A stretch of 64,000 nt of DNA. Source: Enchytraeus crypticus. Taxonomy: Eukaryota > Annelida > Clitellata > Enchytraeida > Enchytraeidae. This document shows positions 2,552 through 50,900 of this stretch, in pieces. A program made the translations under genes and the position numbers. Position 1 is the stretch's first letter. Each line of letters begins with the position of its first letter. The DNA is taken from contig CAJHZI010000518.1 of NCBI GenBank assembly GCA_905160935.1, forward strand, positions 934,501 through 998,500. The letters run 5' to 3'. The notes under the pieces are model-generated. The model was not told the DNA's origin. It did no database searches and worked only from the letters and a program-made list of their open reading frames with translations.

Positions 2552-2617
2552 AGTATTTGTAGAATGATTTACATCATTGGTATTAGTAAAAGACCAGTCT
2601 AAAGTAGCTAAATTACT

Positions 2618-3694
2618 TTAAAATTTTAAAATGTTGGATTTGCTAAATATTCTTATTATAGATCTATTTTCAAAGTTTACCCGTTTGCAAGGACGAACAA
2701 TAGCAATTATATTAGCGAAGTGGTCAGTAATATCCGTAACTACTGTTAAACAAATAGTATTACATAGTAAAGGCGAACAATCACTGTTGAATGAAACAAA
2801 GTTTGAGAATAGATGATCAATAATAGTACCATTCATGTTGTTATTATAATTAGAATTTGAACCTTGTACGCTATTCAAGCAATGTGTCGGCACAACAGAC
2901 AAAGGAGTAAAATTAAATTCACTCAATATATCAACATATCGTTTAACAGTATTATTACAATCATATTTGCCTATATCAATATTAAAGTCACCGCATATTA
3001 AACTCCTTTTGATAGGTTTCCATATTGAAAGAAAATTAGAGAAAATCTCAATAAATTGGGAAACTGGTTTACTGGGATGTCTATAAAATAAATAGATTCT
3101 ATATTTGGTTTCATTAACCCATACCTCTAAAACAATAAACTCAGCTAATGAATTGAACATATTGCAATCAATTGAAGATGATGTAATTTCATACTTAAAG
3201 GAGTTTTTAACTAAACAGGCAACACCTTCAGCCATCTGATTAGCAGGAGTTATCGGAATAAATTTATATTGTAGGAATATATTGTCAAAAAAAGAAATAT
3301 TCTTTGACCTGATTTCACTTAGCAGAATAATATCAAATTCAGTATCATATGATATAAGGAGATCTTTGAGTCTGTTAGCATTCAAACTTCTTATATTGAC
3401 ATGCAGTAAGAGTAAATTAGTTGATTGGATGCTTTTTAAGATTGAATTAGTTAGCATTCAAACTTCTTATATTGACATGCAGTAAGAGTAAATTAGTTGA
3501 TTGGATGCTTTTAAGATTGAATTAGAATCATCTGGTATATAATGGCCAATCTTACAAGCACTAATAAAATTAGAGTTTAGGGATCCAGTAAAATTAGGTA
3601 TTTGATGATCAGACTGCCTATCATTATCAATAATACTGTCCAAAGTTATATGACTACTCATGATGACTTCGAAGATGGCATAGTATGCACCCAC
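2618..3694 (-). pseudogene. LINE endonuclease domain (broken ORF2, N-terminal part)
   Basis: Apurinic/apyrimidinic-type endonuclease domain of the same LINE, which would nick target DNA. Readable motifs are LLLLHVNIRSLNANR (N-terminal Asn strand), FDIILLSEI (catalytic Glu), a YRIYLFYRHP strand and ICGDFNIDIGKY (Asp/Asn pair). The C-terminal TDITDH stretch carries the expected D-H pair. The N-terminal 75 residues (3,694-3,467) are in another frame because a 76/75-bp tandem duplication interrupts the reading frame at 3,375-3,525. The 5' UTR and any ORF1 were not found upstream. Confidence 0.85.
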
Positions 3695-18500: not shown

Positions 18501-19138
18501 CAGATGCACTGCAGCAAACAACACTGGTTACATTCTCCCTACTCAGCACTAGTAATTTGGAAAAAAGTTCAATGCCTTCGCTTACCAAAAATCATGTTTG
18601 TGGTAGGGACCAGGGACAAACCCGTTTCATCTACGTTATATATACTACTTGGACTTGTGATGTTGTATTCTTTTATTTTACTAACCAATAAATCAAAAAA
18701 TATATTCACTTGATGATGATTCATGTGCTGGGCCCGAGCCAATAAAAGACCCTCCGGTATTTTCACAGTAACTTGGCGATGTCTCTTCAAAAATTCTTCA
18801 AGCCAATCACGTGAAACTACATGCACGTGAAGAACTCTATTTGAAATATTAGGTGTAGATTTGTGCTTGTCTAGGTACTCGCGAATGATATCCTTGAGAT
18901 CAGAATGTGTTAATCCAAATCCGCGACCCTCCATGTCGATAATATATTTAACCAGTTGTTCTTGTTTGGCACCATTAAGTAATCTACGTGGTACAACATT
19001 GCCCAGGTTCTTCTTTCCACTTTGTTTATTAATATACTAGCTGATCCGGCGGACTTCGTACCGCCTATCAACAATACCTATCTATCTGTTTGTCTGTCTG
19101 TCTATATCTATCTATCTATCTATCTATCTATCTACATG

Positions 19139-26926: not shown

Positions 26927-29900
26927 CTAACAAATTGAGAGAGACAGAGAGGGAGTGAGACTTTTAAAGTAGTTAGTAAACATTAAGCGACAAGCAAAGC
27001 GTACAAGAACGCGTAGGCCCTATATATTTGTGATGCATGTCTGTGGATAAAGTGAAATTAACATACAACGGAAATGTAAACTAATACTAAACTTACCTCT
27101 AATCTTCGCGAGCGTCGACTGAGTGACAATTCATTGGGATCAGGTTCTTCCTCAGGAGAATAGTCACGTGATCTTTGACGTCCGCCCGTCGCTCTATGAG
27201 GAGCGGGATCAGCGGGTGACTTGGCTGGACTCGAGCTGAGAGAGCGAGTCTCGTACTGCTGATGGAGACGTCGAACCCTGGGGTCCTCGTTCCTCATCTC
27301 TCCCACCTGCAGGGCCTGGCTAGCGTCAGGGGTGAAGAGCAGGCTGTTGGATGAGTGAATATCGTGTATGGATGGTAGGTCAAGTAACTGAAGAGCTCGA
27401 TGTAGCTCTTCAATAGTGGCATGATCATCTCTCAGCTTCCACCACCTCTGCATGAGATCTTGGAACTGATCGGTTAGATTGGAAGGATTCTTTAGTTGAA
27501 TGTCTTTTATCATTCGCACAGTTTCTTTGTCACTGAGAACCTCATCAAACAAAATCCAAGCGAGATCCTGCCACTTGTCGCCAATCTTAAAGAAGAGAAG
27601 AGTTTGACGTGTTGGAGAAGGGGCACGCCCCTCAGTGTCGCTCTCCCCTCCACTCACGTATGACGCTTGTGATACCCTCTGTCTCTCTCGCTGTCCCTCT
27701 CTCTGTCTCTCCATGTCATGCATCATGCGCCTCATGCTGCGCCCTCTAGCAATGACCCACTGACCAGGTTGAGCGTTTGCCTCTCTCTTCGGCAGAGTCT
27801 CAAAGAGAGCTCGAGGCGGTGCAGTACCTGATGGTATCATGGACATGTACATCGTGCGAGACTTGAGCACTGTGTTTCTATCAACTTGCTCCATCCACAG
27901 CTGAGCTATTATACTGTAGCGAGAGAAATCAACCGGATCTGGTTCCAGTATTCTGGGTGGCTCATAAGTTTCTTGTGCCTTAGGTCTTGCACCATGACCT
28001 CGACGACTTCCTTTGGAGCTTGATCTTCTCTTTTCAAGACCAACTGATTGAAATGCACTTCCCTTTGACGATTCCAATCCTGCATTTTTAAAATCCCTTT
28101 CCTTGTCTTCTCTTTCCTTTTCATTTACAGGTTTGTTTTCCTTTTGGTCATCCTCCATCCTGTTCTTTGTTTCAACCGTATCCCGTGCTGGCTCAGGTTC
28201 GTACAGGGAGTCATAACGATCAGCGTCAAATGCATCAGACTCCTTCCTTCTGACCGAGCCTCTGTGGCTACCAATGACGTACAAGGGTTCAGGTCGATAA
28301 ATGTGACCCGCATTAGATGGCGTATCTTCTGCTGCCGCTGCTCTACTTCTAGACTGCTTATGACCTCGCTGCACTTCTGCTGAAATAGCCTCTATAGCGG
28401 CATCTTGCAGGGTTCTGGCTGGTAAGTCAATAAACGGCTTGTCGTCTGGCTCAGCATCCCTGGTCGTTTGACGGCGTCTTTCCTGTCTCTGTCTCAGCTG
28501 AAGGCTTCCTAAATTCACGACAATATAATTCAGTAGATTATTATACGGCATTCTTAATATGATAGTTATTATACTGATAATTAGGAAAATATTAGTACGT
28601 TATAATCAAGCAAATGTATCATTATGTCAATTTAGAATCCCTATTATCTATTGGATTTTTATTTCATACTTTCTAATTCATTTCCCTTTGTCCTTCAGTA
28701 TTTTTAGTATTCTGTATATTCTTTTATTCAGTATATTATATGTTATATGGTAAATTTTGTATTCTTCTGAATTTTTTTCAATATCATTTGAAACTATATC
28801 ATTTAATATTAAAGTAATTTATTCAGTATTTTTTCTCTGAGTAGAAATAAAACGAAATGATTCGGTTCATTAGAGAGAGAACTTGTTTATTAGAAGCAAA
28901 GTAAAATTTCATTAGAAACTAAAGTTGGTACCGCCAGATATCCGGTGTATGAGAGACATCATAGGCCTACCTGTGATAACTTTACAGATATAGCGCGATG
29001 TCTCTGAGTTGAAACTTCGTTGAATATGATTTAATGATCAAAACGTATGCAACCGCTGTTAACAACTATGTCTGTTGCATTCTCTGTAATTTTATTCATA
29101 GGCCTACTTCAAGTCACCAAATACCAATTTAGCCATATAACATATCGAATCCGTGTCCAGCTCTATATTAATTTTATATTTCCACAATCATTATCAGCGT
29201 CCTCTGTAAATGACACTAAACCGATCTTCAACTTTATTTCCAACAAAGGAAGAGAAGGGGATATGGCGTAACGGTTAGACTGTTCGCCTGTCAGTCACCA
29301 ACAAACGAATATCTGCTAGGGCTCCTGGAATTGTGCCCATGTATCGGCGCTTGCAGCCAATTTAAAGGAAAGGAAGCAGTCTCGAAGACCGGTCACCGGC
29401 CACTGTAAATTTAATTTGAAAGAATAGTTGCATTAATTAAACAGTATTAATATGTAGTTCCGACTGGGCCTACTTATCACTTCTAAAGCCAGTAGCAACA
29501 ATTGACTATTTTAAATATATTCAAAAATTAAATTTAAAGTAATAAAATCCATTGCCTCTATTTCACTCAAGCATTCAGCACACGTTGATAAACTTAAATT
29601 CTTAGAATAAAATTAATCACATTATCTCTAAAATTTCAGTCATTTGTGTGCCAATGAGCCTATACATCTAATGACCATGTCTATGAACACCTGTTGATTG
29701 CGTACAAACTTAAGATAGCCTACCTGATCCACTGCGACTAAACTCTCCCGCCCTCCTAACATTCTCGGCTCGTGGAGGAACACTTTGCGGGCTCCTAGCC
29801 TGACCTCTCTCAGAGGACCTCTGGGGTGACAACGAGTGGTGCCTGTCACCTGACTGTGCTCCGAGTTTAATGGATTCAACCGCCGGGTCATCTTCAACTT

Positions 29901-32900
29901 GACCATCAGTCTTATCCAGCTTTATCTCATCCACGCGTGACTCAGCATTCTGCACATCATCCTCATAACCATCATATCCCTCCCACAACCACGAGTCCGT
30001 CTTGTCGGGTTGATTGTCCCTTGTGGCGCGGCTGGTTCTGTTGAGGCTGATGGCGGCCTGAGAGGGACGATAGACTCCCCGCCCGTAGCTGAGCGAGTCA
30101 TCGGCTGCCGCTGATCTCTTCTTGATGCGCTGACTGCCTGAGCTCAGGGTCAGCTGAGACAAAGCCGCTTGCTCGAGAGATAGCTGAGGAGGTCCCACAG
30201 ATAACTTAGCGTCCTCCTGCTGCTTTGGACGCTCCCTTACCTCACTTGCAGATCTTCTCTCACTTCTCATACTTGATCTCTGACTTCTGCCACTTGCCCT
30301 TCGAGCGCTTCTCGTTATATCTGCACATATGAGTGCAAGTCAAAAGATTCCTCAATGGGCAACATTTTATGAAAACTATTTTCATATCCTTGCTCAGGTT
30401 CTGTTGCAATTAATATATTACAAGATATTATTAAGACGTATACTATCAAACATATAAATGATTGTTCATTCATAATGCTAATAACTGAACTTAAGTGAAG
30501 CTGAGAGACGACTTCATATAATACTGGTCAATGTATGTCCTAAGAACTAGAACCGAAAATAAAGCTAGTTTCTTTGACAGGATGCCCAATCAGCCACGGG
30601 TGGACCCAGTGATTTGAGTTAATCATTAACGTAGTGGAGCAAAGAGCCGCTTGCTCATGCCTTACTGTTTTTAGCGACATTATAGACAGCTTTTAAATCA
30701 GACAAAGCTAGTTCAAACTTCGTCCTGATATCGTGGAGTTGCTCTTCAGCAGCATGCTCTACTCTACTTTAGCAAGAGATGTTGGTTCACGTGTTGTTTG
30801 TACTCTATCCGGGTTTATCCAAGTCAAAAACAATGACTGAATTTCTCGCCTTACGGCCAGAACAAAATAATACGAATAAACATGAAATCCAGGTATAGAC
30901 TAACAAGTAACAAATGACAAAACATCTAAGACATAACATTTAAAAGGTTTACACTACCTTCAGGAGCATAGTCGATATGCCTCTGTTGAGAGAGACTGCT
31001 CGTAGGAGCATAGTCAGATTTCTTGTCCTCTACTTGACGATCAGTCGCCTCTATCACATCCCTTCCCTCATTATCTCCCTGAGGCGTTTCCTCCTCCACC
31101 TCGTACCCGTCATATCCATCCCACAACCAATCCACCTCATCCTTCTTATCGCCTGTCTGGCGAAGTCCTCGAGATCCAAGTATCTTGATAGGCGGCTCTG
31201 AGGCAGGCTTGTAGACACCTCCTGCATAAGACACTGAGCTCTCAGGCGCCCTGCGATTAGTTGAACGTCTGCCGCCAGATGTCTGGTGTGACGATAGAGC
31301 TTCAAATGCCGCCTGCTCCAAACTCTTATCTATGGGTTTAGAGAGTGGCTTTGCGTCAACAAGAGAAGAGTCGGTACGATTTGTTGGAATCCTGGTTGTG
31401 GAACGTCGTGATCTAACAGAACTTGATCGTGCACGCTCTCCTAACAAAATACAAATATAAATCAAGTAATCGAAGAACTTAACATTTGGTTTATAAGTCT
31501 ATGACAATATCAGGGATTTCCTGATATGCACTTAACAAAACTGAAATCAATGACGTGGTTATCAGTGTTTCTTTTTTCTCTAGAAGTAATTAACTGTTAC
31601 GGTTGAGAATTTAATTTAATGTCTAAATTTTGATGTGTAAGATTCACATATTCCAACAAGAGATCTTACAATTAAGTAGGCCTAAAGTTTTCACATTTGT
31701 ATTTGTCCATCAGACCCGGAAGCTGATTTTTTGTTTTTAAAAGTCCCAGTCCACGAATAAAAATTCAAATAAGAATGGATTCTATAATTGTTTGAATTGT
31801 TCTCAGTTGTATTCGGAATTATTGATAAAATAATTGACGATTCGCTTTATTTCTGTCCACTACATCTATGCGATATAACCTAGATGAATATCAGACACTC
31901 ACCTCTGATGAACGACACTGAAGCATTCTGGGGCGTTCTGCTCCTCGCTGTACCCAACATTCTCTGCGGAGATCCGTTCATCTCAATCCTCTCACTCTGC
32001 TTGTCTCGACGCTCAGTCTGAGAGACGTCGATGGAATTTTCCTGATGCGCTTTATCTGGGTCATCAGCAGCGCCTTCAGCATTAAACCCTTCCCACAGCC
32101 AGTCGCTGTTGACGTCACGAGTTGACCTCATCGCACTGGATGATCTGCCCACGTTAGGAGCATTGCGAGGTCTATATACGCTGAGTGGAGTAACTGCTTG
32201 ATCAATGGTGCCCTCGTTGCCCCTCCTCAATCTTACACTGCCACGTAAACTCTCTTCTCTCTGAAGTACTTCCATGGCTGCCTCAGTCAGAGTTCTACTG
32301 GTAAAAACGATTTTGCTGTTCCTCTCCGCTACCTGACCTTTCGTTGATGCATTCAAGCTCCTTTCTCTCTGTGAACTCGTTGTTTGTTTCCTTTCAGACG
32401 AATGCCCATCTACATTAAAATATATAGTGATTAGTCATCATTACATCGAAAAGACTCGATGTCACTCAATATCAAGACAATATAAAATTACAAGTCCTTA
32501 TCAGAGTACTGACACGACGTCCCAACTGAAAGAACGTACAAGTTCTATTTAATGTGCAAATCAATGTAACACTACCCAAGTAGAGATAAAAGCAACTGGT
32601 TCAAGTTTAAATCACTGTTAGCTTTAGAGTATTTACTCGATAACATTTTCAAAATCATAAGCTGAAAAAAAAGCCAAATTGTAAGTAAAATTATAAAACT
32701 TTTGCTGAAGTCCATCTAACAACACAGTCAGAGAAGGGTAACGTCTCTTTCTACAGCGCTTAATTTACAAAAAACCAACTTAGAAAAATCGCACAACCTG
32801 AAATGAAATAACTTGATTTTATGAACATTGTTAATAAATTACTTTTAAGATATATAGAATTAAACTGACCCGGGAATAAATCTCTTTTAACATTGTCCGC

Positions 32901-35900
32901 TCTTTTCTCAGTCAAATGTTCTGAGAAAGAATTAGTAGAGCCTGGACGTTCAGAAGACCTGGCCCGGTAGCTCCCTGCCTGCCTACTGCTCGAGTACAGC
33001 TCTCTGTAGTCCTGGCTGTGGAAGGGGGATCGTCTCGGGTTGGGCCACACGTCGGCGTGATGCTGCGTGAGGTTGGGGTCGTCAGGGGGGTAGGTGAGGG
33101 ACACCTCGATGAAGCGGGGACTGAGGTCTCGCTCGTACATGTAGCACTCGTCACAGTGCAGGCAGTGACCGTGGTCCTCGTCCTCCCCGCATGAGTCATA
33201 GGCGTCGTACGACTTCCCGTGGCCGATGAATCTCTTTCCCTTCACCTGCCGATGACGAGCGCTGCTGGATGACGCTGCTAGCAATAAACAACAAATTAAC
33301 AATTAAACTACGTTTAAAATCAATTTAACTTATAAACTCAAAACTTCCTACACCTTTCTATCGTACTTATCTAAGCATTGCTTTCATTCTTCCTTTACAT
33401 AGGCTTTGTTTTACTAATAATTATCTTCAAGCAGTCTCTTTATCTCATACACATTTTTGGAACAGTTAAGAAATTCTTTTTTTCGCTCCTTTTCATATGC
33501 AGCTCCCACCATTGGGAACTTTTTGCTATCTGATTTCCGCTCTTGATTTTCTGTTTCCATTTTCTCTAACAGGCTTAAAACACAACTTTTCTCGTCACTG
33601 TCGTCAGAGATACAGAGTTTCTACACTGACTTTTTTGGATCACTACAAGGCAAAATTTACAAACTTTTCTCTTTAATACATGGTCTGTATAAATCTTTAT
33701 GGTTAGTCAGTTTACAGCGATGTGTGCATCTTCTGAGGATGTTTCTTGACATCAACCTTAGAGTAGAAGAGGAGCTAAGAGTTTAGTATTTATTTGCTAT
33801 TTAGTCACAGCCAAAGTTTATGTACCAAGGAGGAGAGTGGGGGCTAAACCCCACAGCTTTTCTGCTCAGCCCCTCCATCTTTCAAACAAAATTCATTCCC
33901 TGCCATTAAACATGTAGAATTGTAAAGTAAATAATGTGAAGTATGATCCACAGTACGTAATTATATGACAATAAGAGGACTTTACCCTATTTGTGAACTT
34001 ATGTACTCATTACAGCAAACTCATTCGTATATTTATTAGGATTAATATTAATCGGTACTAAAACTGCATCAAGTTGTATTGACGCTAGTAAATCGTTTGC
34101 TAACAGTGCGGCGTTCTGCTAATCGCTTTGGTCAATAACTTAGCGTACTACTCGCACATGCTGTACTCGCTCGGGAGATTCAAGTGCTCGTTCGGCTCCT
34201 TGTGCACAATTCAGATTACATCTATCACCCCCACATCCCAATTGCAAGAGCCTAGTTGCAATCCAGATATACACGTGTATAACCTAAACCAGAAAAATTT
34301 CATCTTCAGACTAAAGCCGATATAATACTTCTATCTGTCAATGATTAATTATTGACATAAATTTTGATTAACGAGAGATTTAATTAAGATCAAATCAACA
34401 CTTCATGTGTTACACTATTAAGAGACATTATCACCTATCAGTAGTACGCCATAGATAAGCAACATTGCGAGATCCTACCGTGTTGTGCCCGCATTCCTCG
34501 CCAGCCATCCTGCTTGGCTCGTTGATCTCTTGCTAGGAAATCGTCGAAACTCTCAGTGCCAAAACTTTCTCCATCAAAATATCTATTGTCACCGGCTCGT
34601 AGGTGTGAGTCTGCGCTTATCGGACCATCTCCGTGAAGTGGCTTAATATGTCGCATCTTTGGAGGTCCGCCAGCAGTAGACCTTCTTGCCTCACTTTCTT
34701 CGTCCGAGCCAATCGGTCGAAAAGGTGACGTCGGGTCAACGTAGCGTGGACAGCAGTCAGAATGCTGACCGATGGAATGAGCACCGACATGGCTGCCGCA
34801 GTGCAGACATTCTCCGTAGTCTTCATCATTAGATAGGTATGGATTGTGGTATTTCTTAAATGTGTGTCTCCTCATCGTGGCTTGTGGCCTGTGACCATGA
34901 CGTCTTCTGTCTGCACCTGCGAAAACATGAATACCATGTACAGTTAGTCCGTGTTCTTGTTGTTTAGCTGGAAAAAATTCCAAACGTGACACCTAATCTT
35001 ATCCTTCCAAAGGTTTTGGAGTCCAGTTTCGTTCGAGCTATACAGTAGAATTTGCAAAAATTATAATTAGGGTCAGAGATACAAAAACATTTACAACCAT
35101 TATCAGACAGATAGGAAATATTGCGAAAATAAATTCCGGTTCATAATACTAAACAATATAAATAAAAATAATATATTACTAAAAACTTTTAAAAAATTCT
35201 GGAATTAAAACGATACTACTACTAGACCAACAGCCTAAGCAAAACTCTGTCAATATTTAATACTGAAAATGTATGTCAGTATAATCGCTCTCTAGCCTCT
35301 AGGATTTAAGCAATATTAAGAAAGCAAAATATAATTGTAACAAAGGTATAAATTGGAACGACAGCATTATTCAAACATACCTGTTATAAAGAGACTACTT
35401 AAAAATCTTACATTTTTTATTTGTCTAAATATTCTAAACGACACTTCATCTCAAACAAAAGTTGACTAGAAAGGGTCTGCTTCCACCCCGATTAACAATG
35501 CGCCCACTATGACCTGAGGAATACAAGATACTTCGTTATTTTCCTTAGTGATTGCATTCGTGACACTTTTTTGACACTCATGTAATTCTCATACAGTTTA
35601 ATATAATCAATTGGACTATTCACAAGAAGCAGTCGAATCAAATAATAATAATTAGTAAAATTCTTACGCCTAGCAGTTGGCCTATGCAGTGAGGATCGTC
35701 CAGTGCTATCGCCATCTCTGTATTTGTCAACATAAGCACTGTCGTAGTCGCCTCTTCTAACATATCTGCTGTCATCAGATCCATATCCTTCTGCATCCTG
35801 CTCATTCGTTATGGATTCATCTCCAGGATAGTGCAGTGGTTTAATAGCTCGACGTCTTGGAGATGTTCCAAGATGGGATAGTTCCAGATCACCTTCCTCA

Positions 35901-38900
35901 TCAGATCCAATTCTATCAATAGCCCGAGAATCATCAACATATCTGGGACAGCAGTCAGCGTGTTTACCGGACCCATGTTCTCCTGGGTGCTTCTTACAGT
36001 GAGGACAATCTTCATCTTCTCCGTGTGAGTCATATGGATCATAAGATTTCTTGTAGTACTTTCTGCTCGTAGGTCGAGAAGATCTTCTTCTATCGCGCTG
36101 ACTGAGACCTGAAAACATAAATTATAGATGATCAATTATACGCAAAAAAGCCTATTATTACAGCTAGTGAGATTTCGCAAAGATGCTGCTAACTTGTAGA
36201 AATCATTACCTTAGACTTACACATAGCAATACATACAATAACATTTTCTGCCTCATGAGTATCTTCATGTAAAGCAAAATCTAAATGAATAGTTTCCAAG
36301 AAAAGTAAACATATTAAACCAAAGCCAACAAACTTAATTTGGGAATACAATAAAGGAGTATAAATGCTGTTTCAATGCACATTTTAACGAAACGTAATAG
36401 CATAAAAGACTGAATTAAATCTTTTTGCAAAGGAATTCTAATGGAAAATTAATGATTGGCTGAAGATGGAGACCGGGTTTTTAGGGTTTAGACTCAAAAT
36501 GAGTAAACGCGGGGTTTGCATCGTGACTGAATTTCTTTCTACAACAAACTGAGTTACGCTCAGCTTTGAGCTTTCCTTTCTAATCTTAAACAAATTGAGC
36601 ATAACATCCGAAAACACAAAACTAGAATAATTTCATCAATTGTATTGCTAAACGTAATTCTAGTTGAGTGACACGAATTTATTCGATTACACCAGCACAC
36701 TAGTCCCCAGACAAAGTTATTTCCAAGTAAATGTCCTGTCAGTAAATATATTTCAGCAAAAAATATTTTAGCCAAATCATATTAGTAAATTAATATTTTA
36801 GAATATCAAACATGCTATTTCTTGTAATATCTAACTTCTTAGTATTCCTAATTCAAGCAGAAAGATCTAATTGCAATTGACTTATAGTTCTCTCGCAGAG
36901 ACTCTGAGAACATTTATATAGACAATCTATTTATTCTTGATAAAGGTAGTAAGTATTTCAGTCTCACAAATTTCAAGTGAATAACGTCCAACATTAAGTA
37001 ACACCTTAAATTAATTTTGAAAATATACAATCTGTTATTTGTTTCAATAATCTACATTACGTTACAATACTTTAATACTTTAATACTTTAAAACTATAAT
37101 ACGTTACAATATGACTGTTGCGCAAAAGTAATAGTAGTATAAGTCGTATTTGAAGTATCAAAAAAGTACTACAGATATGGAAATGAATATCTTCACAGAT
37201 ATGAAAATATTTATTTAAATTTGTGCTGCAAATAAGTATAATGCAAACTAGTAATCTCTTGTAAATGGTACACAAAGCATGACTAACGTTGAGCTCTGGC
37301 AATATGGCGCTGATTGTAAGAATCTCGAGTCGAACGAGCACCCATCCCAGACACAATATCACCAGCTTCATCATCAAAACTAGCATCACTTCTTCGCCCA
37401 ATCAAATCTTGTTCAGTCGATATAGATTCATCTCCATGATAGTGCAGTGGCTTAATAGCTCGACGCCTAGGAGATGTTCCAAGATGGGATAGTTCCAGAT
37501 CACCTTCCTCATCAGATCCAATTCTATCAACAGCCTGAGAATCATCAACATATCTGGGACAGCAGTCAGCGTGTTTACCAGACCCATGTTCTCCTGGGTG
37601 CTTCTTACAGTGAGGACAATCTTCATCTTCTTCTCCGTGTGAGTCATATGGATCATAAGATTTCTTGTAGTATTTTCTGCTCGTAGGTCGAGATGATCTT
37701 CGTCTTCCTCTAAATGATCGTCCTGTAAATGTACACATAATTAGCCAATATAAACATAAAACTATATCATATATACTTAAATCTAACAACAAACTGTTCC
37801 TGATATCCATCTCATATGAAGAACCAGACGTTAAATCCTCTTTGTTCTAATGACTAGAAAAGAAATTGAATGGAACACGTAGCAAGTAGTTTTTTAAATG
37901 ATAAACATTTGTGAATGTACTCTTCGAAAAGAGTTGTGTATACAATACAGACCTAAACTAAATCCGTAAACTGGATCTCTAACAAGTTGACAATTCACAT
38001 TTACTCAATTATCACAATTACCGATAATCCCGATTTGAAACATCTTATTTTAAAGACGTTACTAATTATTAATGCCCAGAATTGAAAAATTACCACCTGC
38101 TATAATATGGCACAAGTTCGAATATCAGTTGAATTTTCATGGATGTTTTCTAATAACTAATTGATAATAATTGTTAAAATATAAATTCAGGCTTTCCAGA
38201 GTCGTGCTAGGTTAGACATTGAGGTAATTAAAATCAATAAACTTTGAAGAATTCCTACATAATGACTAAAATTTAGAGCTGTACGACTTTAAATAACAGA
38301 TTTGATACATATTAAGTCAATTTGTAATGTCATTTGTTTAGTAGACTATTCATATGGCAATCTAGACGAGTGCGTCCATAAAATCCAATCATAACTGGTA
38401 TCACCAAAAACAATGGAAGTCCCTACGGGACCCTCTCATGATTGCATTGAGCTATATAATCCTGCTATTAATATACAATCTAAAAGCTCTCTGCAATGTG
38501 ATAATAGTGCACTGCCTACTGGTAGGTCCCTGGTATATAACGCCTCCACGCTTCTCTGTCTTCCGCTTTCCTAAATGCTAAAGATGATAATTTTAACGAT
38601 ATTTTCTTGTCCTATTTGACACGTCATTACACAAGTACACTTTGGTCAGATAACCTTTATACACTTTACATAATGAAGAATTGAAAGCAGTACAGGGGGA
38701 AGAGAATGTAGGAGTAACTGCAATGTGTTATCCTGCATTTTGAATGAGATAATAGTGTGCAGGTTGAGCAACTAGCATACTAGGAACTTGACTTTATTAG
38801 TTTAAAACACAGAATTAAACAGTACGGTTCATGCGATAACAATAATTTAATTGATGACCATCAAGTAATGGCAGATCTGTCAAAATGTAGGATGTTAATG

Positions 38901-41900
38901 ATTAGAGCAAAAACCCTTGCTTACCACTTGCTCTGATGATATGACGTCTGTTTCCAGCTTGCTCGGATTGTACTACTGACATACTCTCATCCATTCCTCC
39001 GTATGATCCCTCATCACCATACTGATACAATCCTTCATCCTGTTCGTTCGTTATGGATTCATCTCCAGGATAGTGGAGTGGTTTAATAGCTCGACGTCTT
39101 GGAGATGTTCCAAGATGGGATAGTTCCAGATCACCTTCCTCATCAGATCCAATTCTATCAACAGCCTGAGAATCATCAACATATCTGGGACAGCAGTCAG
39201 CGTGTTTACCGGACCCATGTTCTCCTGGATGCTTCTTACAGTGAGGACAATCTTCATCTTCTTCTCCGTGTGAGTCATATGGATCATAAGATTTCTTGTA
39301 GTACTTTCTGCTCGCAGGTCGAGAAGATCTCTTTCTTCCTCTATATGATCGTCCTGAAAGAAAGAAAACGTTTAACCTAATTATGTAAAACGGTATGACC
39401 ATGAGACTCGTAAAATTTATCTCTTAAATATTTAACTTAGTTATACTTAGAAAGCTAGAAGACTTCAACTACAATGAATAACATATAGCGAGTTTACCGG
39501 AGCAATCGGACCTATGGGGTCATATGGCAAAATATATACACATTCCTCCTATGTTTCGTGTTGATTTCAAATATGCTCAAAACTTTGTTCTAACACGTCA
39601 AGTGTTTGAGATATATGCAAAAATTTAATTTAACTATAATTGCTCCTTATTGCGGTAGTACGCACGCATAGTTGCAAATAAATTCATTACTGAAATTTAA
39701 CGATATGTCAAAAACAATCTGAAAAGTCAAAAATTAGTGTTCTGTAGAATATATAATAGTTTCAAGACATTGTATTAATTTATCGTATCTATTTTGGTAT
39801 CTGTTCAGATACTTAATGGGCACCTCTCATAGTAAAACTTCTTCGCCATTTCTAAGTAAAACTAATGGACTCCACCACGATTCCAAGATGAATATCAGAA
39901 GGTCATGAACCCCAGAATTTATCTGCATAACGTGTGATAGTAACTCGTGCTATAAGTTACTAACATGGTGAATGGGTTCATTAAGCATCTCTGTGATGGG
40001 ATCGTTTATATCACGATAGATGGAGTGTCGCGTAGTTAATTCCGGCTGTAGGAAGCTTCAAAGAGATGTTTTAAACGCTCCATAAAAAATATAAGGTAAG
40101 GCAAGGCTAATGTTGACGTCAGTTTCCTCACTCGAAAGTGATGTCAGTGACGCGCGAGCCCAGGATTTGAACCTCGCAGGATTTGATTCGCGGTCGAGTA
40201 TCTTACCGACATCGCAGCTGGCTCCAGCCAGTGGCGGATAAAAGAAACAGAAAGAAAAAAAAGTATAACAAGTAAGAAAGTATAAAAGAAAGTCATCACC
40301 AAAAAGATTCAAGCCAAACACACCATAAATATAGAAGGCATCAAATGCTGTATACTAAATTAGAAACTAAACAGATAATCAGGAAGAGGGTCTACTTTAA
40401 CTACTTTAATGTCAAACATCACCCAGAGCCTTCTGGATCACAACATTTTGCACAGTAGCTAGAGAACAATTTTAATTGCATGCATAATTACTATACGCAC
40501 CACTTGCTCTGATGATATGACGCCTGTTTCCAGCTTGCTCGGATTGTACTACTGACATACTCTCATCCACTCCTCCGTATGATCCCTCATCACCATACGG
40601 ATACAATCCTTCATTCTGCTCGTTCGTTACGGATTCATCTTCAGGATAGTGCAGTGGTTTAATAGCCCGACGTCTAGGAGACGTTCCAAGATGGGATAGT
40701 TCCAGATCACCTTCCTCATCAGATCCAATTCTATCAACAGCCTGAGAATCATCAACATATCTGGGACAGCAGTCAGCGTGTTTACCGGACCCATGTTCTC
40801 CTGGGTGCTTCTTACAGTGAGGACAATCTTCATCTTCTTCTCCGTGTGAATCATACGGGTCATAAGATTTCTTGTAGTACTTTTTGCTAACAGGTCGAGA
40901 TGATCTTCTTCTTCCTCTATATGATCGTCCTAAAATAGATGATTAAGTTGGAATCTATACATATAAAATTATCTTCATTTTTTCCATTGTCAATGGTACC
41001 AGTTACAGCAGGTCAAGAATTTCAGGTCTTACTGTATTCATTAGACAAACAGTGTTATAGTATTTAACAAAATATTTTTAGTATAAAAAGACTCAGCAAT
41101 ATATTTATGGATAGAATCTTCACTGAATTCAGACCGGCATCAGTATTATGATCTCTCTCTTAGTGCACTGTCTACTGGCAGGTCCATGGTTTATAACGCC
41201 TCCACTCTTCTCTTTCTTCCGCTTTCCTCTTCATTTACACACATGACTGGTCTTTAAATCATCTAATATACTTATTCTCAGCTTGCCTCCGCCTCTTTTT
41301 CCTTCCATTCTACCTTCCTTGACCTCTTTTAACAGACCTCCCTCCCTTAGAATGCGTTCTATCCAACCGCTCTTCCTATTTCTAAATACATTTATCAACT
41401 GTCTATCTTTACTAACTCTCTCCATAACTTCCTCATTTATAACCTTTTGAGTCCAGCGAAAAGTTTCATCTCCATTCTTTTCCAAATCCACATTTCCAAT
41501 GCCTCTAGTTTCCTAATATCTTCCTTCCTTACGGTCCATGTTTCACATCCATACAATAGCGTGGTCCAAACCAAAGTTTTCACTATCTTTATCTTTTATT
41601 ATTAACTTTATCTTTATTTATTTAGTATTGTGATACCAAACGATAAACGCTCAAAAATAATATTCCAGAACAATATTAGAAGTAAAACAATGCTTACTCT
41701 AACAAACAATGCATAACGGCCCACTTTAGATGAAGACTATCTACATCTAAGCAATTTTACCAATAAATAATGGATGAAAAAGCAGACATTAACTATACAT
41801 ACATTAACAGACATTAACTAGACATTAGCAAATAAAATTCATTAAGTCTCATTATTTCGGAAAATGTCTGTAATACATGCAAATTCATGAGTACCATTCA

Positions 41901-44900
41901 CAGGATAGTTTTAAAAATTCAGCAGGCATATCACAAATCCGTTTGACAAAAATATCACATCCTATTTGCGTATCAATTACACTAATTCTCTCAAGGAACG
42001 TTACGAACATAATATAGTGATATCTTACAATGCCTGATTGTGGTAGTTTTGTATGGGTTCGCGAAAAATAACATACGTTAAATTTATACTAGTATATGAT
42101 AAACATTTTACAATATTTTAACATTTATAATTAGCAAGCCTACTAAAAATTAACCAGATCGCATTCACATCCGGCAAAAATCAGCACACTTATAGCATAT
42201 ATAGTGGTAATCGATATCCGAGCCAGTATTTGCAATGTTTATCATGGCCAATTTCAAAAGATAAATCAAAAGAATAATAAAAATAATAAAATTAAAATAA
42301 TATAATAATAATAAAGGATAATCACTTCATTATTTGAAGTCTTTAACACTTTTAGTTCATAACTTCTCACACAACCGTACTTTAAAAATTTCGGGTTTCT
42401 GTGACCATTTAGAGTAACTGCAATTCAAATTTCAGCTACTATTCTTGGAATAATATAAATATTAACTGTGCTAACAAGAAAGCCATACCAAAAACCTTTA
42501 AAATTGATTAAGTCCTAAAATAGATTTTATTAACTGTACAAACCACTTGCTCTGATGATATGACGTCTGTCTCCAGCTTGCTCGGATTGTACTACTGACA
42601 TACTCTCGTCCACTCCTCCGTATGATCCCTCATCACCATACTGATACAATCCTTCATCCTGTTCGTTCGCTATGGATTCGTCTCCAGGATAGTGCAGTGG
42701 TTTAATAGCCCGACGTCTAGGAGATTTTCCAAGATGGGATACTTCCAGATCACCTTCCTCATCAGATCCAATTCTATCAATAGCCTGAGAATCATCAACA
42801 TATCTGGGACAGCAGTCAGCGTGTTTACCAGACCCATGTTCTCCTGGGTGCTTCTTACAGTGAGGACAATCTTCATCTTCTTCCCCGTGTGAGTCATATG
42901 GATCATAAGATTTCTTGTAGTACTTTCTGCTCGTAGGTCGAGAAGCTCTTCTTCTTCCTCTGTATGATCGTCCTACAGGAATAAAAAATTAAACAGTAAT
43001 ATTCTATGTTTTATACAATTCATCTCCTTTATTACTGTCAGTTACTTCTAGTTGGAGATTACCACCATAACCCAAGGAGTCATGAATGACTATGTTCAAT
43101 TTAATTTAATTTTTAAAGATTCATTTTGGTTGCACACATGAGAGACGAACGTGCTACTGTGTCTTTGCATAAGTTACTGAGTTTTGTACTTTTCATTCTT
43201 TTCTTCTTTCCATGGCTACTAATAGTTGTGCCATATAAATGATACACTGCAATCTGCGCCGCTTAAGAATAACCTTTCAAAACTTTGTGATTTTTATTCA
43301 ATCCAGCAAGCACTCGGTCTTCCAAGGTGGTCGCTCATCCATGTGCTAGCCGTTCCTTGTGTTGCTTAAATTCGGTTCCATGCGCACGTTAAACCAAATG
43401 CGCTAACCCAACTCTGACTTTTTATAATCACTATGATATTTTATACACAAATGAATATGCAAATCTAAAATTATTCAAAATAAATTCAAGTTGCGTTAGA
43501 TGATAGAATTTAGTAAAATTTCTAAACTCTCTTAGTTTATACGGAAGTAAACACATTGCATAGAGTGAATTTCCATAAAAGGAAAAGGATAGAAATACGT
43601 GGTCGAGTAATGTGCTATGAAACTAACATTTGATAATACACTAGAGTGATACAATTATTGTCGCAAATTAGAATGAAAAGTATTATTATCCGTCCAAAAC
43701 TTTCAAGGTTTTTACATTTTCTTTCACAATAAGTGGCGTAGAAAATTAAATTGAGCTACTTTTATTAAAAGCACTGAGAAAAAGACTTACAGACTTAATG
43801 AAGAGAATTTATTAGCTAGAGGCTGGATGTAACCTTTAATACGACTATTTTTGGTAAAATTTATTAGATAATCTCTAGTGTAATATAATATCATAAAGGA
43901 AAATGGTAATGGAACTAATTTACCTTTCTAAATATTATACGAGGGTCTAACCCTTGGTATATCACTTAATCGTGTTAATCTACGGTTATGGAGGAAATAT
44001 GCTTACTCATAAGGTGTTATAAATATGCTTGCTCTATGGCGTTCTAACCCTAGTATAGGTATTGGAACTAATTTAGTGTGGAAGCTAACCTATGTGTATG
44101 TCCTAAGCCAACAGTATACACATAAGTCCATTTTCTAATTTAAATTATACCTTCATAACAAATATACAGGTATACAAAAGTAAACAACAAATGTCAAACG
44201 TGTTACTGTTCATCGATATAACTTCTACTTACTGTTCAATTTTCAGTTTCTCTCTTAATTACAAAGTTACTCACTTACTTAATACTTAAGTTACCTTACC
44301 TCTGCTATGCTTACGTTTCTGTTAAAGAGGAGACTAAGACAGAAGAAGATAGAATAGAATAGAAAAAGACTTACAGCCTCGTAAAGACTTAAAGAGACCC
44401 TCAACTCATTTGCAAGCAGTTTATATACTGTACATATACATCCTACAGACGCTAAATAATTACTAGAGAGCAGGCATACATGCAGACTAATAGATACAGC
44501 TACAAGTAACGCTACTAATTCAAATTACTGAAAGAAAGTCACAGGCAAAGGTTATCATTTGAAATGAGAATTAACTCGACTTCATTATGGAATGTGTTCT
44601 ACTTCCATAAAAGCTAATTATAAGATAGAGATCAAACTACACAACAACATGGAATATGCCGAAACCGACGTAAATATACGATTCTACTACCCCAGCAGCC
44701 AAGCAGTAGCTTAATACATTCTTTTGACTGAGTCACTATTATCTAATCGTGCTAGTGCAGGCCTATACACCAATGCGGAAGAATACATAATAAACTAAAT
44801 GATAAAAGCAGTAGACTCAAAATACTAAAAATAAAGGTTAATCAACTATTATCAACTGTTTCCTCGCAAATAAATGACGCCTAGAGCAGTCCTGCGGCGC

Positions 44901-47900
44901 TTATCACTTCATAAGGTGAGCTTCTAAACAGAATAGAATGAATGTGAATTATGATAACAAGAAATTCATACCAAAGGCATTTAAAATTGATCAAACCCTA
45001 AATAGATTTTATTAACTGTACACACCACTTGCTCTGATGATATGACGTCTGTTTCCAGCTTGCTCGGATTGTACTACTGACATACTCTCATCCACTCCTC
45101 CGTATGATCCCTCATCACCATACTGATACAATCCTTCATCCTGTTCGTTCGTTATGGATTCATCTCCAGGATAGTGGAGTGGTTTAATAGCTCGACGTCT
45201 AGGAGATGTTCCAAGATGGGATAGTTCCAGATCACCTTCCTCATCAGATCCAATTCTATCAACAGCCTGAGAATCATCAACATATCTGGGACAGCAGTCA
45301 GCGTGTTTACCGGACCCATGTTCTCCTGGATGCTTCTTACAGTGAGGACAATCTTCATCTTCTTCTCCGTGTGAGTCATATGGATCATAAGATTTCTTGT
45401 AGTACCTTCTGCTGACAGACTGCGATGATCTTCTTTTACCCCTCTGTGATCGTCCTGCAAAATAAATTGTAAATCAGCAGACTAAGTTGAGCTATTGCTA
45501 TAACAACGCTAGAGCAATACAGCTCTCATTACCCACGACGTTGTGTCCGACAATTTCAGAACATACCAAACTTAAACTAAGTAAATCAGAAGAGAAGACA
45601 ATGGAGCAAGAATAGAGAAATGCAAAGATTAACCACCTCAGATGCCATATTATCTCAAACTATATTCTTGATTAGAGTCTGGTGAATTATAACCCTTGTG
45701 ATAGAATAAACTTGTTGGACAGTGGTATGCTACTGTAAGCAAAGAAATGCTACAGTTCTATTGTTCTATTTTATTATTCTATTCTTCTATTACTATTTAA
45801 TTTCATTATTTTATTTATATTATTGTTCTATTATTCTATTTGCTATTTTAAGCAAAGATGTAAGTAAAGATTTGAATACAAATATGTGCAAAACCTTTAA
45901 CACTAATACCCCAGAAATGCTACTTCGAAGACTTTTTGTAGTGATCAGGTACCGATAGACGGCAAATAAATGAGTACATGCAATGATGACAATGAGAAAC
46001 ATTAGATGAAAAAGTTTCATACCATGGAACTGCAGTCAAGCAATAAACCGAGAGAGAAAGAGAATGGAGAGAAGGACAGAGAGAGAGAGATAGAGAGATA
46101 GAGAGAGAGAGAGATAGGCCAATATCTAACAGAAGCCAATTAAATACATATTTATTATAAATCAAAATATTAAGAATTACAAGTGCCTGAAAAATGCTGT
46201 AAGATTTTCTAAACTTGAATAACTGAGGTCCAGAAAGTTTACATAAAGTAAGACTAAGGCTCACACTAAAGTAGGACCAGCCTAACATGAAGCCAAATTA
46301 ATTTGTTAGATCTAGACTACATTAATTCTGGACAAATATCGATAAAGATCATGTTAGGTTTTACATTTTGTGTAGATAGTTTGAGATTGCCAGAGGTATA
46401 AATTACTTTTCATGATTAATTACTAACGTATTGTATGCCCCGATAAAAACCAAATTCCTCTAAAAAAGGTACGCATAGCAAATATCTTAAGTGTAGATAT
46501 TAGATAAAGTGCATTATTAAGTGTAGATGTAAGATAAATATTTCAAGTGTAGATATTAGATTTTAAGTGTAGATATTACAAAAATGCAAATTAAAAGTTA
46601 GAATAAATAGTAGCTCTGAAGACCTCTCATGGCTCGAGTTCTCTTAGACAGGCTAGTACCAAGCATCTGGGATTCAGTCATCGACTCTTCATCAAAGGTT
46701 CGCATTCCCATACCCGCACTATCGTCATGCATCTCCGAATCATCTTCTATATCTGCCTTCTTTCTTCTCTCGTAGGAAAGAGGTCGTATACTTCTTTGCT
46801 TGGGCATATTTCCTCCAATGAAGCTCATCGAAAGTTCATCGTCCTGAACTGACACATTGTTGAGCTCTTCATCATCAACATATCTGGGACAGCAGTCAGC
46901 GTGTTTACCGGACCCATGTTCTCCTGGGTGCTTCTTACAGTGAGGGCAATCTTCATCTTCTTCTCCGTGTGAGTCGTACGGATCATAAGATCTCTTGTAT
47001 CTGGCATTCTTGAATGCTTTTGAAACAGACTTCTGTTTTCTAGCACTTCTGGCACGAACTACACAAAAAGACAATTATCTTAGCGTGAGTTAGAATACAA
47101 ATTTTAAACTAAAAAAAGTCTAAAAAGATTGAAAAGTTGAACCCCATTCACAATATAATATCCTATAATAATGACATACTTTACATACTTTGACATACTT
47201 TCATGTCACTTCAAAACGCTAAAAATAAGATAATGACCTATAATTGTTATTATGGGAGCAAAAAGTACATTCGGAGTATTGAAGGAATAGAACACATCAT
47301 GTTTTTAATCAGGTAACGGAAGTAGATAAATAAAACTTTCGTTGAATGGTTAATCAGATAATTACGAAATACATGTTAATGCACAGTAATTCAATAGCTC
47401 ACTTCACGCTGTGAAGAGTGGACTGATTATCTGGATTTTGGAATTTGCACCGTTTTTGAACCTTCTTTATGCTCGCCGGCTTGATTTTGTCTCAATAGTG
47501 CTCGATTTTGTCAATGATGACTGTAGCACTCTAATTGTTGTTATGTTATGTTATGTTATGTGAAATAAGACTCGAGTACATCTCCGAACATATCAATGAA
47601 TTGACTCCGACTATACCATCCTTTGGTGGCGATGCAGCACTAGAGGAACGTTTAGTGCAGTGAAAATGAAAAATATTCATGAGATTTGCTTTAACTTATA
47701 ATTTAACTGAAAGGAATACATTCGAATTCGACCCTTCTGGATCGGTGCTACAAATAGTCTACCTGTCATACTGAGAAAATACAAATCTCACTCTCTCTCC
47801 ATTTTCCAAGTTTCAAAAAGCAACTTAAAATATTCTATTCGCTTGAACTTTTTAATACCTTGCCACCAATATGGCATAGGCGTAAAGTGATGTTTATATA

Positions 47901-50900
47901 ACTCTATCCATTATGAATGGAATTATGCAGATCATAAGGCTGTGTATAACTGTAGCGCACCTTAATTTAGCCTTAACCTTAGAAAACACGTAGTTCCAAG
48001 ATGGTCTTCATTTCCTTACTCAGTAGCTTCTCTAGTTAGATATTATGGAACACGTATCAGTTTTCGAAAGTCGTGTTTCAAATTTCCCCGAATTTATCCG
48101 TGTAATACCGTAACTAATTTGAATTAAATTTACACTTTAACATTTTACATTTTACATTTTAGAGTTGAAGATTGACATACCTGAACGAATAACTGGTTTA
48201 AAGGCGCTTCCAGCGTGCGAAATTCCAAGAGTATCCTCGCTGACGAAGCTAGCTGTCAGACTCACTGTGTCCGCCTTCTCCGATTCATCCACAACTGACG
48301 CTGACGTCCTCTTCTTGTACTTGATAGGTTGAATCTTTCTGATTTTCGGAGCAGTACCATTGGAGAGCATAGACAAACGAGTAGAATCCGCATCGAGTCC
48401 GTTAGTAAGATCAGTCTCCGAGGCGCCGATAAAGCGCGGACAGCAATCCGAGTGATTAGCGTCCTTACCGTGTTTACAGTGCGGGCAGTACACAAACTCC
48501 TCGTCACTGGAGTGAAGCTGTTGAGACTGGTTTGATATGAACTTTCGTTTTGTGTACGAGTCGTTGTATGAACGATTTCCCTTTGAGCTGCGCCTGCGCC
48601 TATGCGCTACAAAAATATAGAACATAATTTTGTTGGGCATGTAATATAGTTAGTTAAGTATAAAGCCACAAAAACATCTGTACTCCTCGTCATTATCATC
48701 AGCTTCATCTTTGGATTCAATCTTCCCTTTAATCCTAAGTTAACTAAGGTTGGGATTTGAAAATTTTGTAATAATTTTGAAGACTAGGCGCTCATCAACC
48801 GAAAGCCCTTTCTGACGGTTTGGATCTTAGTGCTTTGTCGCCTTTTACGGCAGATGGGTCCACGGTTGGTATATTCTTCAGCAAACCGGACACAATGCGG
48901 GCAACAAACTATTATGATAACAGTACATGCTATGGTTCATTTGAAGGTTCAGATAAATAAGAGATTCCGCGAGAGACAACAACAACAGCATCCCCAGGTT
49001 CAGATCAATAAGTTCGCGCACAACTCATAGAGTAGTGTTAAGATTAAATAGTTAGATCGTGATAACGTGCATATTGATTCCCCATGTTTACCTTCTGGTC
49101 ATTTTTGGTAAAAAAAATAATTTCAGTCTCGAAGACCTGTCAAGGACATGACATTGCTATAGAAATGATCGTTAAAAAACAAATACAGAACAATTTTATT
49201 CATATGAATTCTGTTTTTGGTTTATGGTGTCGGTTTTTAGTTTTCATAATTTCCTACTTCCTCTCCATGGTTATTTGTAATCGTGGCCTTTTGACGGCGC
49301 ACAGAAAATAGTCGGCGCGGATTTAAGAGTAACTTTCAAACATCTTGGGAATTTTTCATTCAAAGTTGACAACGGTGTAACTGAAGAACGACTAAAATTT
49401 TGTCTATAAGTATTTGAATTAATTTGCAATTTAATTATATCAGACCTCTGTTTCTAGGTAGCGTTACAGCTTTCATGGAATCTTGCATCATCAGCGACTG
49501 ATCTGCAGTCTCATCCTGTAGATATTCTGAAGGAGCATCAACATCTCTGCTGTCCTCCACACCCCCGCCAGACCTGATTGGTCTGAACGTGTGTCTCGGC
49601 TGAATGTTTCTCTTGAGAGGGCCGCGTCCGTGGCTCTGAGCGTCAAACTCCCCAATGCCGCTCTCAGCCTGATCGTCCTGCTGGGAGGTGTCGCCGTCGA
49701 CGTAGCGTGGGCAGCAGTCGTGATGCTTCTCGGCGTCAGAGATGACCCCTGACTCGCTCGTGTGGCGACAGTGAGGGCAGCCTCCATCGTCGTCGTGGTA
49801 CGACTCGTGCGAGTCAAACAGTCGTCTGCCCTTGTAGCCCAGTCTCGTCCTCGATGATGATCTTCTTCTCGCTGAAACAATTACGTACATGTCTACTAAT
49901 ATCAAATCTATGTATAGTGTATTGCACTTAGTGCCTATCAGAAGGTCCATTCTAAAAAAACTCCTCTAATTATCACTTTCTTCTGCGTGCGTTTTCATAT
50001 TAAAATATATTTTCATAATTTACATACAGACACACAAAAGTAAATAATAAATGTCTTTTATATATACAATTGTGGTATCAAATTGTCAAACATCCTTTCT
50101 CATCAGGTGTACTTGCCTCCAACTTTCTCTAATTTTTTTTAAATTTATACCTGTATTACCTCTTACAACATATCATCTCTCCTCATAGAAAATGGCTTAT
50201 TAAGCCATCATTTCTTTTTACCGCGCATTTAGCAGTTGAGTATCATTACCGGCCCATCTTAATTCTATATTTTATTTTTTTAATCACTTAATTATTCCTT
50301 CCTTTTCCATAACATTATCTATTATCAAATCAATATGTCTATTTTTGAACAATAATTAAATTGCTGCTAATTTTAAAGACAACATCGATCAGTATTGAAC
50401 CAAATTCAAACAGATATTTATGTATCAAATGCAATGTATTGCATTGGATACATAAATATGACATATCTATTATGCATTATCTAATATTCTTGCAAGTGTT
50501 TACAGAGTTACCAGGCTTACAGTACTGTATGTCTACTTCTGTTATTTTCTCTTCATTCAACATTGGCAACGCAGCTAGGATCAATTAAAAATAAGGTTAG
50601 GGTATAATAAAACCTTTCCATAATCCCGAGTTTTACTCATAGCTGTGTACCACGAAATTAAAACGCAGACCTCACGACTATTACGCTCATGCTGTAATAA
50701 AGTACCAAACACCGATTCCAATATGATGCACAAAAAGTCATATATTGAAAACATAGACTGCTTACAGTGTCCATGATGCCCGGCAGAGAGAGCTCTTCTT
50801 CTTCCACCGTGCAGGGATTTAGCCTTCTCTCGAGCTATGGAGTAAGCTTCAACATTACATTCAGCATATTATCAAGTTGGGATCTCAATACTAACTTGCA

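What the first reader, a model, noticed from the sequence alone, without database searches (positions are those of the whole stretch)
32870..49871. Expandable array of eleven homologous phase 1-1 cassette exons with a Cys/His module
Eleven consecutive minus-strand exons (408-441 bp) encode one module: an Arg/Ser start, an acidic Tyr-Asp patch, C-P-H-C, 11-20 residues, H-x-D-C-C-P-R-Y, and a basic R-x-I-x-P tail. Every one is a multiple of three and bounded by phase 1 introns, so each can be duplicated, lost or skipped without a frame change. I know no named domain with this C-x-H-C...H-x-D-C-C-P-R-[YF] pattern; Cys/His suggests a small metal-binding fold. The setting between ankyrin repeats and a death domain suggests a scaffold whose number of docking units can vary by genome or by splicing. 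Exons, phases and motif are seen directly; metal binding and splicing choice are inference.
Basis: partly seen in the sequence, partly recalled or inferred. Interest (0 to 1): 0.9.

Follow-up and report, generated by a model that had tools for sequence, protein, structure and literature searches.

The report
Homogenised cassette-exon array in annelid scaffold
In an annelid worm, one gene carries eleven copies of an undescribed cysteine/histidine-rich protein module, each on its own swappable exon, and the cores of most copies are kept nearly identical while the DNA around them has drifted apart.

Summary
Eleven minus-strand exons (405-441 nt, all phase 1-1) run from 49871 to 32870, between an ankyrin-repeat exon and a divergent death-domain exon. 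Corrections: C11 is degenerate, and the CxxC-to-HxD spacer is 7-14, not 11-20. Mitochondrial gene order points to an annelid. The module matches no Pfam, NCBIfam or PDB family, but 18 metagenome ORFs are homologous; the genome search found it only here.

Three further results. (1) A paralogue on contig C710 has the same two ends but no detected module; a phase 1 intron stands where the array sits. (2) A second symmetric family, D1-D3, resembles the start of the terminal exon. (3) Core silent sites of C3-C9 are homogenised while introns hardly align and several heads and tails are saturated: gene conversion.

AlphaFold2 gives no confident fold. Best reading: a largely disordered multivalent scaffold whose unit has a probable metal site and basic Ser motifs. 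Splicing, metal binding and docking are untested. New variant of a known kind.

The parts
61328..61404 (-). candidate first coding exon (ATG..., phase 2 end)
   Evidence: read by eye; unverified
51983..59166 (-). E0: ankyrin repeats, then about 2,000 residues of S/E/K/D-rich sequence; ends in phase 1
   Evidence: Pfam Ank_4 7.8e-31; composition; acceptor read
50766..50834 (-). m1: candidate 69-nt exon, phase 1-1
   Evidence: borders only, no homologue sought
49446..49871 (-). module exon C1
48181..48606 (-). module exon C2
46624..47058 (-). module exon C3 (core homogenised with C4-C9, flanks diverged)
45026..45454 (-). module exon C4
42544..42972 (-). module exon C5
40501..40929 (-). module exon C6
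38925..39353 (-). module exon C7
37288..37722 (-). module exon C8 (tail diverged)
35668..36108 (-). module exon C9 (tail diverged)
34479..34916 (-). module exon C10 (old, not homogenised)
32870..33274 (-). module exon C11 (degenerate)
31903..32409 (-). D1: second cassette family, 507 nt, phase 1-1
   Evidence: E 0.019 to D2
30958..31440 (-). D2: second cassette family, 483 nt, phase 1-1
29724..30320 (-). D3: second cassette family, 597 nt, phase 1-1
   Evidence: E 4.4e-11 to D2
27097..28508 (-). D4: terminal large exon, D motif at its start, divergent death domain
   Evidence: Pfam Death 0.0026 under cut-off; 18 homologues

Best explanation
This is an array of symmetric (phase 1-1) exons in one of two paralogues, in an annelid, of an animal ankyrin-repeat/death-domain gene that is not a canonical ankyrin. 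A phase 1 junction just upstream of the death-domain exon, free of detectable modules in the paralogue, holds two cassette families here: the Cys/His module (C1-C11) and exons resembling the start of the terminal exon (D1-D3). Tandem exon duplication made the copies long ago. Since then gene conversion confined to parts of the exons has kept the cores of C3-C9 nearly identical, while introns, some heads and several tails have diverged beyond recognition. Each unit is best seen as a mostly disordered segment with a basic Ser-rich head of RRxS type (a likely kinase target), an acidic stretch, a four-Cys CxxC..HxDCC site that probably binds one zinc ion, and a basic RxIxP motif. In series the units give the protein many like docking points between its ankyrin repeats and its death domain. 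Shown by sequence: open exons, phases, homologues, paralogue, conversion-like pattern. Inferred: splicing into one mRNA, direction of change (gain here rather than loss in the paralogue), zinc, phosphorylation, docking.
For: Exons and phases. Genome search with C4: 10 matches of 11 candidates scored, all C1-C10. Paralogue on C710: ankyrin exon 40% over 263 aa, death-domain exons; no hit to C1-C11 or D1-D3 at 1e-2 nor to the module profile at E 1 in 130 kb; junctions in phase 1 by sequence. D family. Conversion: silent differences C3-C4 about 4 of 23 sites in the core against 45 of 60 outside; C4-C9 core+mid 3 of 49 against tail 21 of 29; C4-C7 head 7 of 14 against 1 of 79 for the rest (rounded estimates). 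Run test, ten exons, third positions only: 9 of 45 pairs at 0 of 2000 shuffles. Introns: three blastn matches in all at 1e-3 (96 nt 81%, 56 nt 79%, 68 nt 91%). Core silent sites are not frozen in themselves: C1, C2, C10 against C4 give pS 1.03, 1.02, 0.79. Tree: C4-C9 form one group (SH-aLRT 95) apart from all 18 homologues. Cys: exactly four in each of C1-C10, all in the motif, none in D1-D4; C35, C38, H50, C53, C54 invariant over the 20 rows of A2, that is 13 of 18 homologues and 7 of 11 window exons. RRxS/T in heads of C1-C10: 15 seen, 4.8 +/- 2.0 shuffled, 0 of 5000 reach it (copies are not independent).
Against: No transcript data: the join of E0, C, D and D4 rests on order, phases and the paralogue. 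AlphaFold2 gave no confident fold. In the run test restricted to C3-C9 at third positions only 1 of 21 pairs reaches 0 of 2000, 11 of 21 are at or under 5%, and none of these involves C3 (there the shared core sites are mostly monomorphic, so C3 rests on the Fisher count). Regional constraint can raise such tests. Of 11 pairs of metagenome ORFs compared, only 2 show identical cores with diverged tails, and short contigs may be chimaeric at identical cores. C1 and C3 have weak donors. The genome search missed C11, so diverged copies elsewhere could be missed too. No function is known for any member.
Confidence: 0.6

Rival explanations
1. Choice array: the C exons are alternatives, and splicing picks one or a few per transcript, as in Dscam, so that tails and heads give variant proteins.
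For: All exons are symmetric, so any subset keeps frame; tails of C8, C9 and of C1-C3, C10 differ strongly.
Against: C4-C7 are nearly alike (protein identity 92-94% to C4 for C5-C7), which gives little to choose from; a Dscam study found no gene conversion between its alternative exons and argued selection against it (PMC3236188, passages).
Confidence: 0.13
2. Pure spacer: the repeats only set the distance between ankyrin repeats and death domain, as has been postulated for the repeat array of Drosophila Ank2-XL, and the motif has no binding role.
For: No confident fold; low-complexity composition; spacer idea for Ank2-XL (PMC5135030, passages).
Against: Cys/His and RxIxP positions are invariant over 20 rows, more than a spacer needs.
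Confidence: 0.15
3. Recent tandem duplication alone: C4-C9 are young copies made by unequal crossing-over, without gene conversion.
For: Neighbouring exons are alike; 96 nt of two introns next to C4 and C5 are 81% alike.
Against: The other introns among C4-C9 show only a 68-nt repeat; C3 shares only its core, C8 and C9 lack the shared tail.
Confidence: 0.07
4. Several genes: E0, the C array and D4 belong to separate transcription units or decayed copies.
For: No RNA evidence joins them; E0 has a stop six bases after its donor (of the sequence read).
Against: All exons are open and borders fit in one phase; amino-acid changes are rarer than silent ones between C4-C7 cores (0 of 103 against 0-5 of 23 sites); the paralogue has the same ends in the same order.
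Confidence: 0.05

Closest known systems
Canonical and giant ankyrins (AnkG 480 kDa, Drosophila Ank2-L/XL; PMC5135030, passages seen)
   Same: Ankyrin repeats first, death domain last, a long S/E-rich part between; some giant ankyrin exons hold repeat arrays
   Different: No ZU5 found in the gene, 6 Pfam ankyrin stretches instead of 24 repeats, and the repeats lie on separate symmetric exons instead of inside one long exon
Giant muscle proteins with many in-frame repeat exons (titin PEVK, nebulin), recalled
   Same: Long runs of in-frame repeat exons that can change number without a frame change
   Different: No comparison was run here; the unit is a Cys/His segment and the setting ankyrin/death domain
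Dscam exon arrays (PMC3236188, passages seen)
   Same: Tandem duplicated exons in one gene
   Different: That study found no gene conversion between its alternative exons; here cores look homogenised
CCHC-type zinc fingers and knuckles, recalled
   Same: CxxC-x(7-14)-HxxC resembles their ligand order
   Different: No Pfam zinc-finger model matches, no predicted fold, and a further Cys directly follows the fourth candidate ligand

Membership tests
Ankyrin (canonical) | ZU5-ZU5-UPA cassette | tested here: not met
   Pfam at E 1 on E0, D4, two C and three D reading frames gives no ZU5 or UPA; genome search for ZU5: 20 matches of 40 candidates, none on this contig C425 or the paralogue's C710 (the family rang in 0 of 14 control genomes)
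Ankyrin (canonical) | 24 ankyrin repeats | tested here: not met
   Pfam Ank: 6 stretches in E0; ORFs of 80 aa or more upstream in the window show no ankyrin repeat by eye; beyond the window not examined
Ankyrin (canonical) | death domain | tested here: inconclusive
   Pfam Death matched by 14 of 19 members at E<=0.1, best 6.6e-4, the window's own under the cut-off; profile against PDB: Ankyrin-1 0.049, FADD 0.09
Death domain superfamily | six-helix fold | not tested
   the structure job on A3 was never accepted
Known zinc-finger families | match to a curated model | tested here: not met
   Pfam 1 of 11 members, E 0.23, DUF7129; NCBIfam 0 of 20; PDB profile search 0
Known zinc-finger families | metal bound by the Cys/His set | not testable with these tools
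   candidate ligands conserved; AF2 without metal gives no confident fold
Concerted evolution by gene conversion | silent-site likeness in tracts with sharp borders, flanks diverged | tested here: met
   weaker in the test restricted to C3-C9
Dscam-like mutually exclusive exon arrays | diversified exons, one per transcript | tested here: inconclusive
   diversity is not met for C4-C7; use per transcript could not be tested
Symmetric repeat-exon scaffold | consecutive homologous exons, same phase at both ends, multiples of three | tested here: met
   11 of 11 C exons and 3 of 3 D exons, by sequence

The most novel reading that the evidence does not exclude
An annelid lineage invented a new protein module inside one phase 1 intron of a duplicated ankyrin/death-domain gene, then turned it into a multivalent array of near-identical zinc- or redox-sensitive docking units, held alike by gene conversion confined to part of each exon, so that copy number is the tunable trait.
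Probability: 0.3. Interest if true: 0.78.

Novelty: new variant of a known kind. Interest (0 to 1): 0.57.

Why it matters
It offers a natural case of how a repeat module is born and kept: a paralogue in the same genome shows the junction without modules, the array was found in one gene only, and the exons show conversion-like tracts against introns that hardly align. That makes two questions testable: whether selection for multivalency favours homogenised exon cores (against diversified ones, as in Dscam), and whether copy number differs between species. The module has no curated name in the libraries searched (Pfam, NCBIfam, PDB).

Tried and rejected
Named domain: Pfam, NCBIfam and PDB gave nothing for the module. 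Viral and prokaryote collections: 2, 20 and 21 pattern matches, none confirmed, as expected for an animal gene. A protein search with the whole C-to-D4 part (2,597 aa) found nothing at 1e-3 among 7,834 candidates; the database seems to hold exon-sized ORFs rather than whole animal proteins (inference). Canonical ankyrin: rejected for lack of ZU5. Recent duplication alone: disfavoured by the introns. Rfam over the window: 0 matches. Literature: motif strings in 0 papers; the listings of searches (two returned none) show no paper on this gene by title; only PMC5135030 and PMC3236188 were opened, passages only. Absence from print is claimed for these searches only. Frozen silent sites: dropped because C1, C2 and C10 cores are saturated against C4. 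Restriction of the module to one clade is a guess from contig lengths: 6 of 18 death-domain homologues report contigs of 128 kb or more, and none of the 16 distinct contig lengths equals any of the 18; both searches are word-based, one search scored only its best 8,000 candidates, and diverged modules could be missed.
Full report
WHAT IS THERE. The minus strand of the window carries what reads as one long gene. A large exon E0 (59166-51983) holds ankyrin repeats (Pfam Ank_4 7.8e-31, Ank 6 stretches) followed by about 2,000 residues rich in Ser, Glu, Lys and Asp (50.8% S/E/T/D/K/P over 2,012 residues). It ends in phase 1. A small candidate exon m1 follows, then eleven module exons C1-C11 (49871-32870), three exons D1-D3 of another family (32409-29724), and the large terminal exon D4 (28508-27097) with a divergent death domain (Pfam Death 0.0026, under the cut-off; 14 of 19 aligned homologues match at E<=0.1). 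Joined without a stop from the ATG at 59159 to the end of D4 this makes 4,989 residues. A candidate first exon lies at 61404-61328 (read by eye, unverified).

CHECK OF THE OBSERVATION. All 11 C exons and all 3 D exons are multiples of three with phase 1 at both ends. A profile search over six frames of the window returns the 11 and nothing else below E 1. Ten of the eleven have CxHC, HxDCCPR[YF] and RxIxP; C11 has lost them. Each of C1-C10 has exactly four Cys, all in the motif; D1-D4 have none.

WHOSE GENOME. Contig C802 (15,205 bases) is the mitochondrial genome. By my reading of its ORFs, all on one strand, the order is cox1, cox2, atp8, cox3, nad6, cob, atp6, nad5, nad4L, nad4, then large-subunit rRNA, nad1, nad3, nad2. 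That this is the annelid order is recalled and comes from no call. The species was not identified.

THE MODULE ELSEWHERE. A profile of the eleven finds 18 proteins of 83-195 residues in metagenome collections, of 1,386 candidates (E 2.3e-30 to 3.4e-12). One is labelled as a bacterial MAG, probably animal DNA in a bacterial bin (inference). DCCPR is in 18 of 18; CxxC is in the 16 that are not cut short before it. In alignment A2 (13 of the 18, 7 of the 11 window exons; P0010, P0015-P0018, C5-C7 and C11 left out) C35, C38, H50, C53, C54, R87, I89 and P91 are invariant; P0015, left out, has Q for that last P. Three of the 18 report a contig of the same length, 43,602 bases, so probably a second array (inference). 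By eye, many ORFs read through borders that fit phase 1. In the window's own genome the C4 exon finds 10 matches, all C1-C10; it missed C11, so very diverged copies elsewhere are not excluded.

A PARALOGUE WITHOUT MODULES. D4 finds a second gene on contig C710. It has an ankyrin exon 40% identical over 263 residues, a second exon with a 25-residue likeness to E0 (60%, E 6e-4), and the death domain on two exons. In the 130 kb read no hit to C1-C11 or D1-D3 appears at 1e-2, nor to the module profile at E 1. By sequence the borders from the ankyrin exon to the second exon and from there to the death-domain exon are in phase 1. So the array stands at a kind of junction that is plain in the paralogue; whether the array was gained here or lost there is inference. 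In a tree of 20 terminal exons the paralogue goes with P0025 and P0036 (99/98), the window gene with P0031, P0019, P0020 and P0035 (100/98). ZU5 domains occur elsewhere in the genome but on neither contig (20 matches).

THE SECOND CASSETTE FAMILY. D2 matches D3 (4.4e-11), D4 (0.0013) and D1 (0.019) and nothing else in the genome at E 1, of 6 candidates. The D motif (LQxAA ... YRP) stands at the start of D4 and of most of its aligned homologues, so D1-D3 look like copies of the start of the terminal exon.

CONVERSION. Silent differences per site between C3 and C4 are 0.17 in the 42-codon core but 0.90, 0.80 and 0.61 in head, mid and tail. C8 and C9 share core and mid with C4 (0.04-0.11) but not tails (0.72-0.74). 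C4 and C7 have no silent difference in core or tail but 0.50 in the head. Fisher tests on rounded counts give 2.6e-6 (C3-C4), 5e-7 (C4-C8), 1e-9 (C4-C9) and 2.7e-6 (C4-C7) (pairs share history and are not independent). A run test with shuffled columns over ten exons gives 0 of 2000 for 16 of 45 pairs on all sites and 9 of 45 at third positions; one of the 16, C1-C6, is a short Arg/Ser run. Restricted to C3-C9 at third positions it is weaker: 1 of 21 pairs at 0 of 2000, 11 of 21 at or under 5%, none with C3, because the shared core sites no longer vary in that set. Regional constraint could raise such tests, but the same core is saturated between C4 and C1, C2 or C10 (0.79-1.03). Introns of the whole gene give only three blastn matches: 96 nt at 81%, 56 nt at 79%, 68 nt at 91%. 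In a quick tree C4-C9 form one group (SH-aLRT 95) apart from all 18 homologues. An old array with conversion confined to parts of the exons explains this best. Among metagenome ORFs 2 of 11 pairs compared show the like (57 of 57 then 25 of 43; 46 of 46 then 14 of 37), the other 9 do not show a sharp border, and short contigs may be chimaeric.

FOLD AND FUNCTION. AlphaFold2 with 20 sequences gives pLDDT 57.3, pTM 0.17 and reports no secondary structure; the best stretch (block means 76 and 72) is residues 81-100, around PRRRAIKPLHY. So the unit is more likely a disordered chain with short motifs than a domain. Four strictly placed Cys and one His suggest a metal site of CCHC kind (inference). 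RRxS/T sites in the heads of C1-C10 are three times as frequent as in shuffled heads (15 against 4.8 +/- 2.0; related copies), which suggests a basophilic kinase (inference). A series of like units between ankyrin repeats and a death domain fits multivalent docking. Homogenised cores speak for joint use rather than choice, in contrast to Dscam, where one study found no conversion (PMC3236188, passages). Giant ankyrins (PMC5135030, passages) show that long S/E-rich parts and repeat arrays arise in such scaffolds; here the repeats are on separate symmetric exons.

VERDICT. The fold claim is weakened, the splicing claim is open, and the evolutionary pattern is the more telling result. I rate it a new variant of a known kind.

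Noticed in passing
29724-32409 and 27097-28508: Second symmetric cassette family D1-D3, apparently copied from the start of the terminal exon D4
   Followed up: yes
L036-L038 (contig C710): Paralogue without modules; the long intron between its two death-domain exons holds a virus-like mobile element (integrase-, ATPase- and capsid-like ORFs, judged by eye from memory)
   Followed up: partly
491-3457 and 15510-16058: LINE-type remains on the minus strand: reverse transcriptase 1.3e-21, endonuclease 1.9e-7 and 2.8e-4
   Followed up: partly
18151-19036: DDE_1 transposase (8.3e-13) with a Tc5-type DNA-binding part (6.8e-5), minus strand
   Followed up: partly
38505-38572 and 41161-41228: 68-nt repeat, 91% alike, in two introns of the array, probably mobile
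   Followed up: no
about 57665 and 56594: A block of some 50 residues around SSLATSE occurs twice in E0 (residues 499 and 856)
   Followed up: no
E0, residues 1103-1560: Five KEKKSK-like basic clusters in the low-complexity part of E0, reminiscent of microtubule-binding KKE motifs (recalled)
   Followed up: no
P0001: A module ORF is filed as a protein of a Vallitaleaceae bacterium MAG: probably animal DNA in a bacterial bin
   Followed up: no
51983-52230: E0 ends with HCCPHHGC and RHIQS, possibly a relic of a module; the module profile did not report it
   Followed up: no
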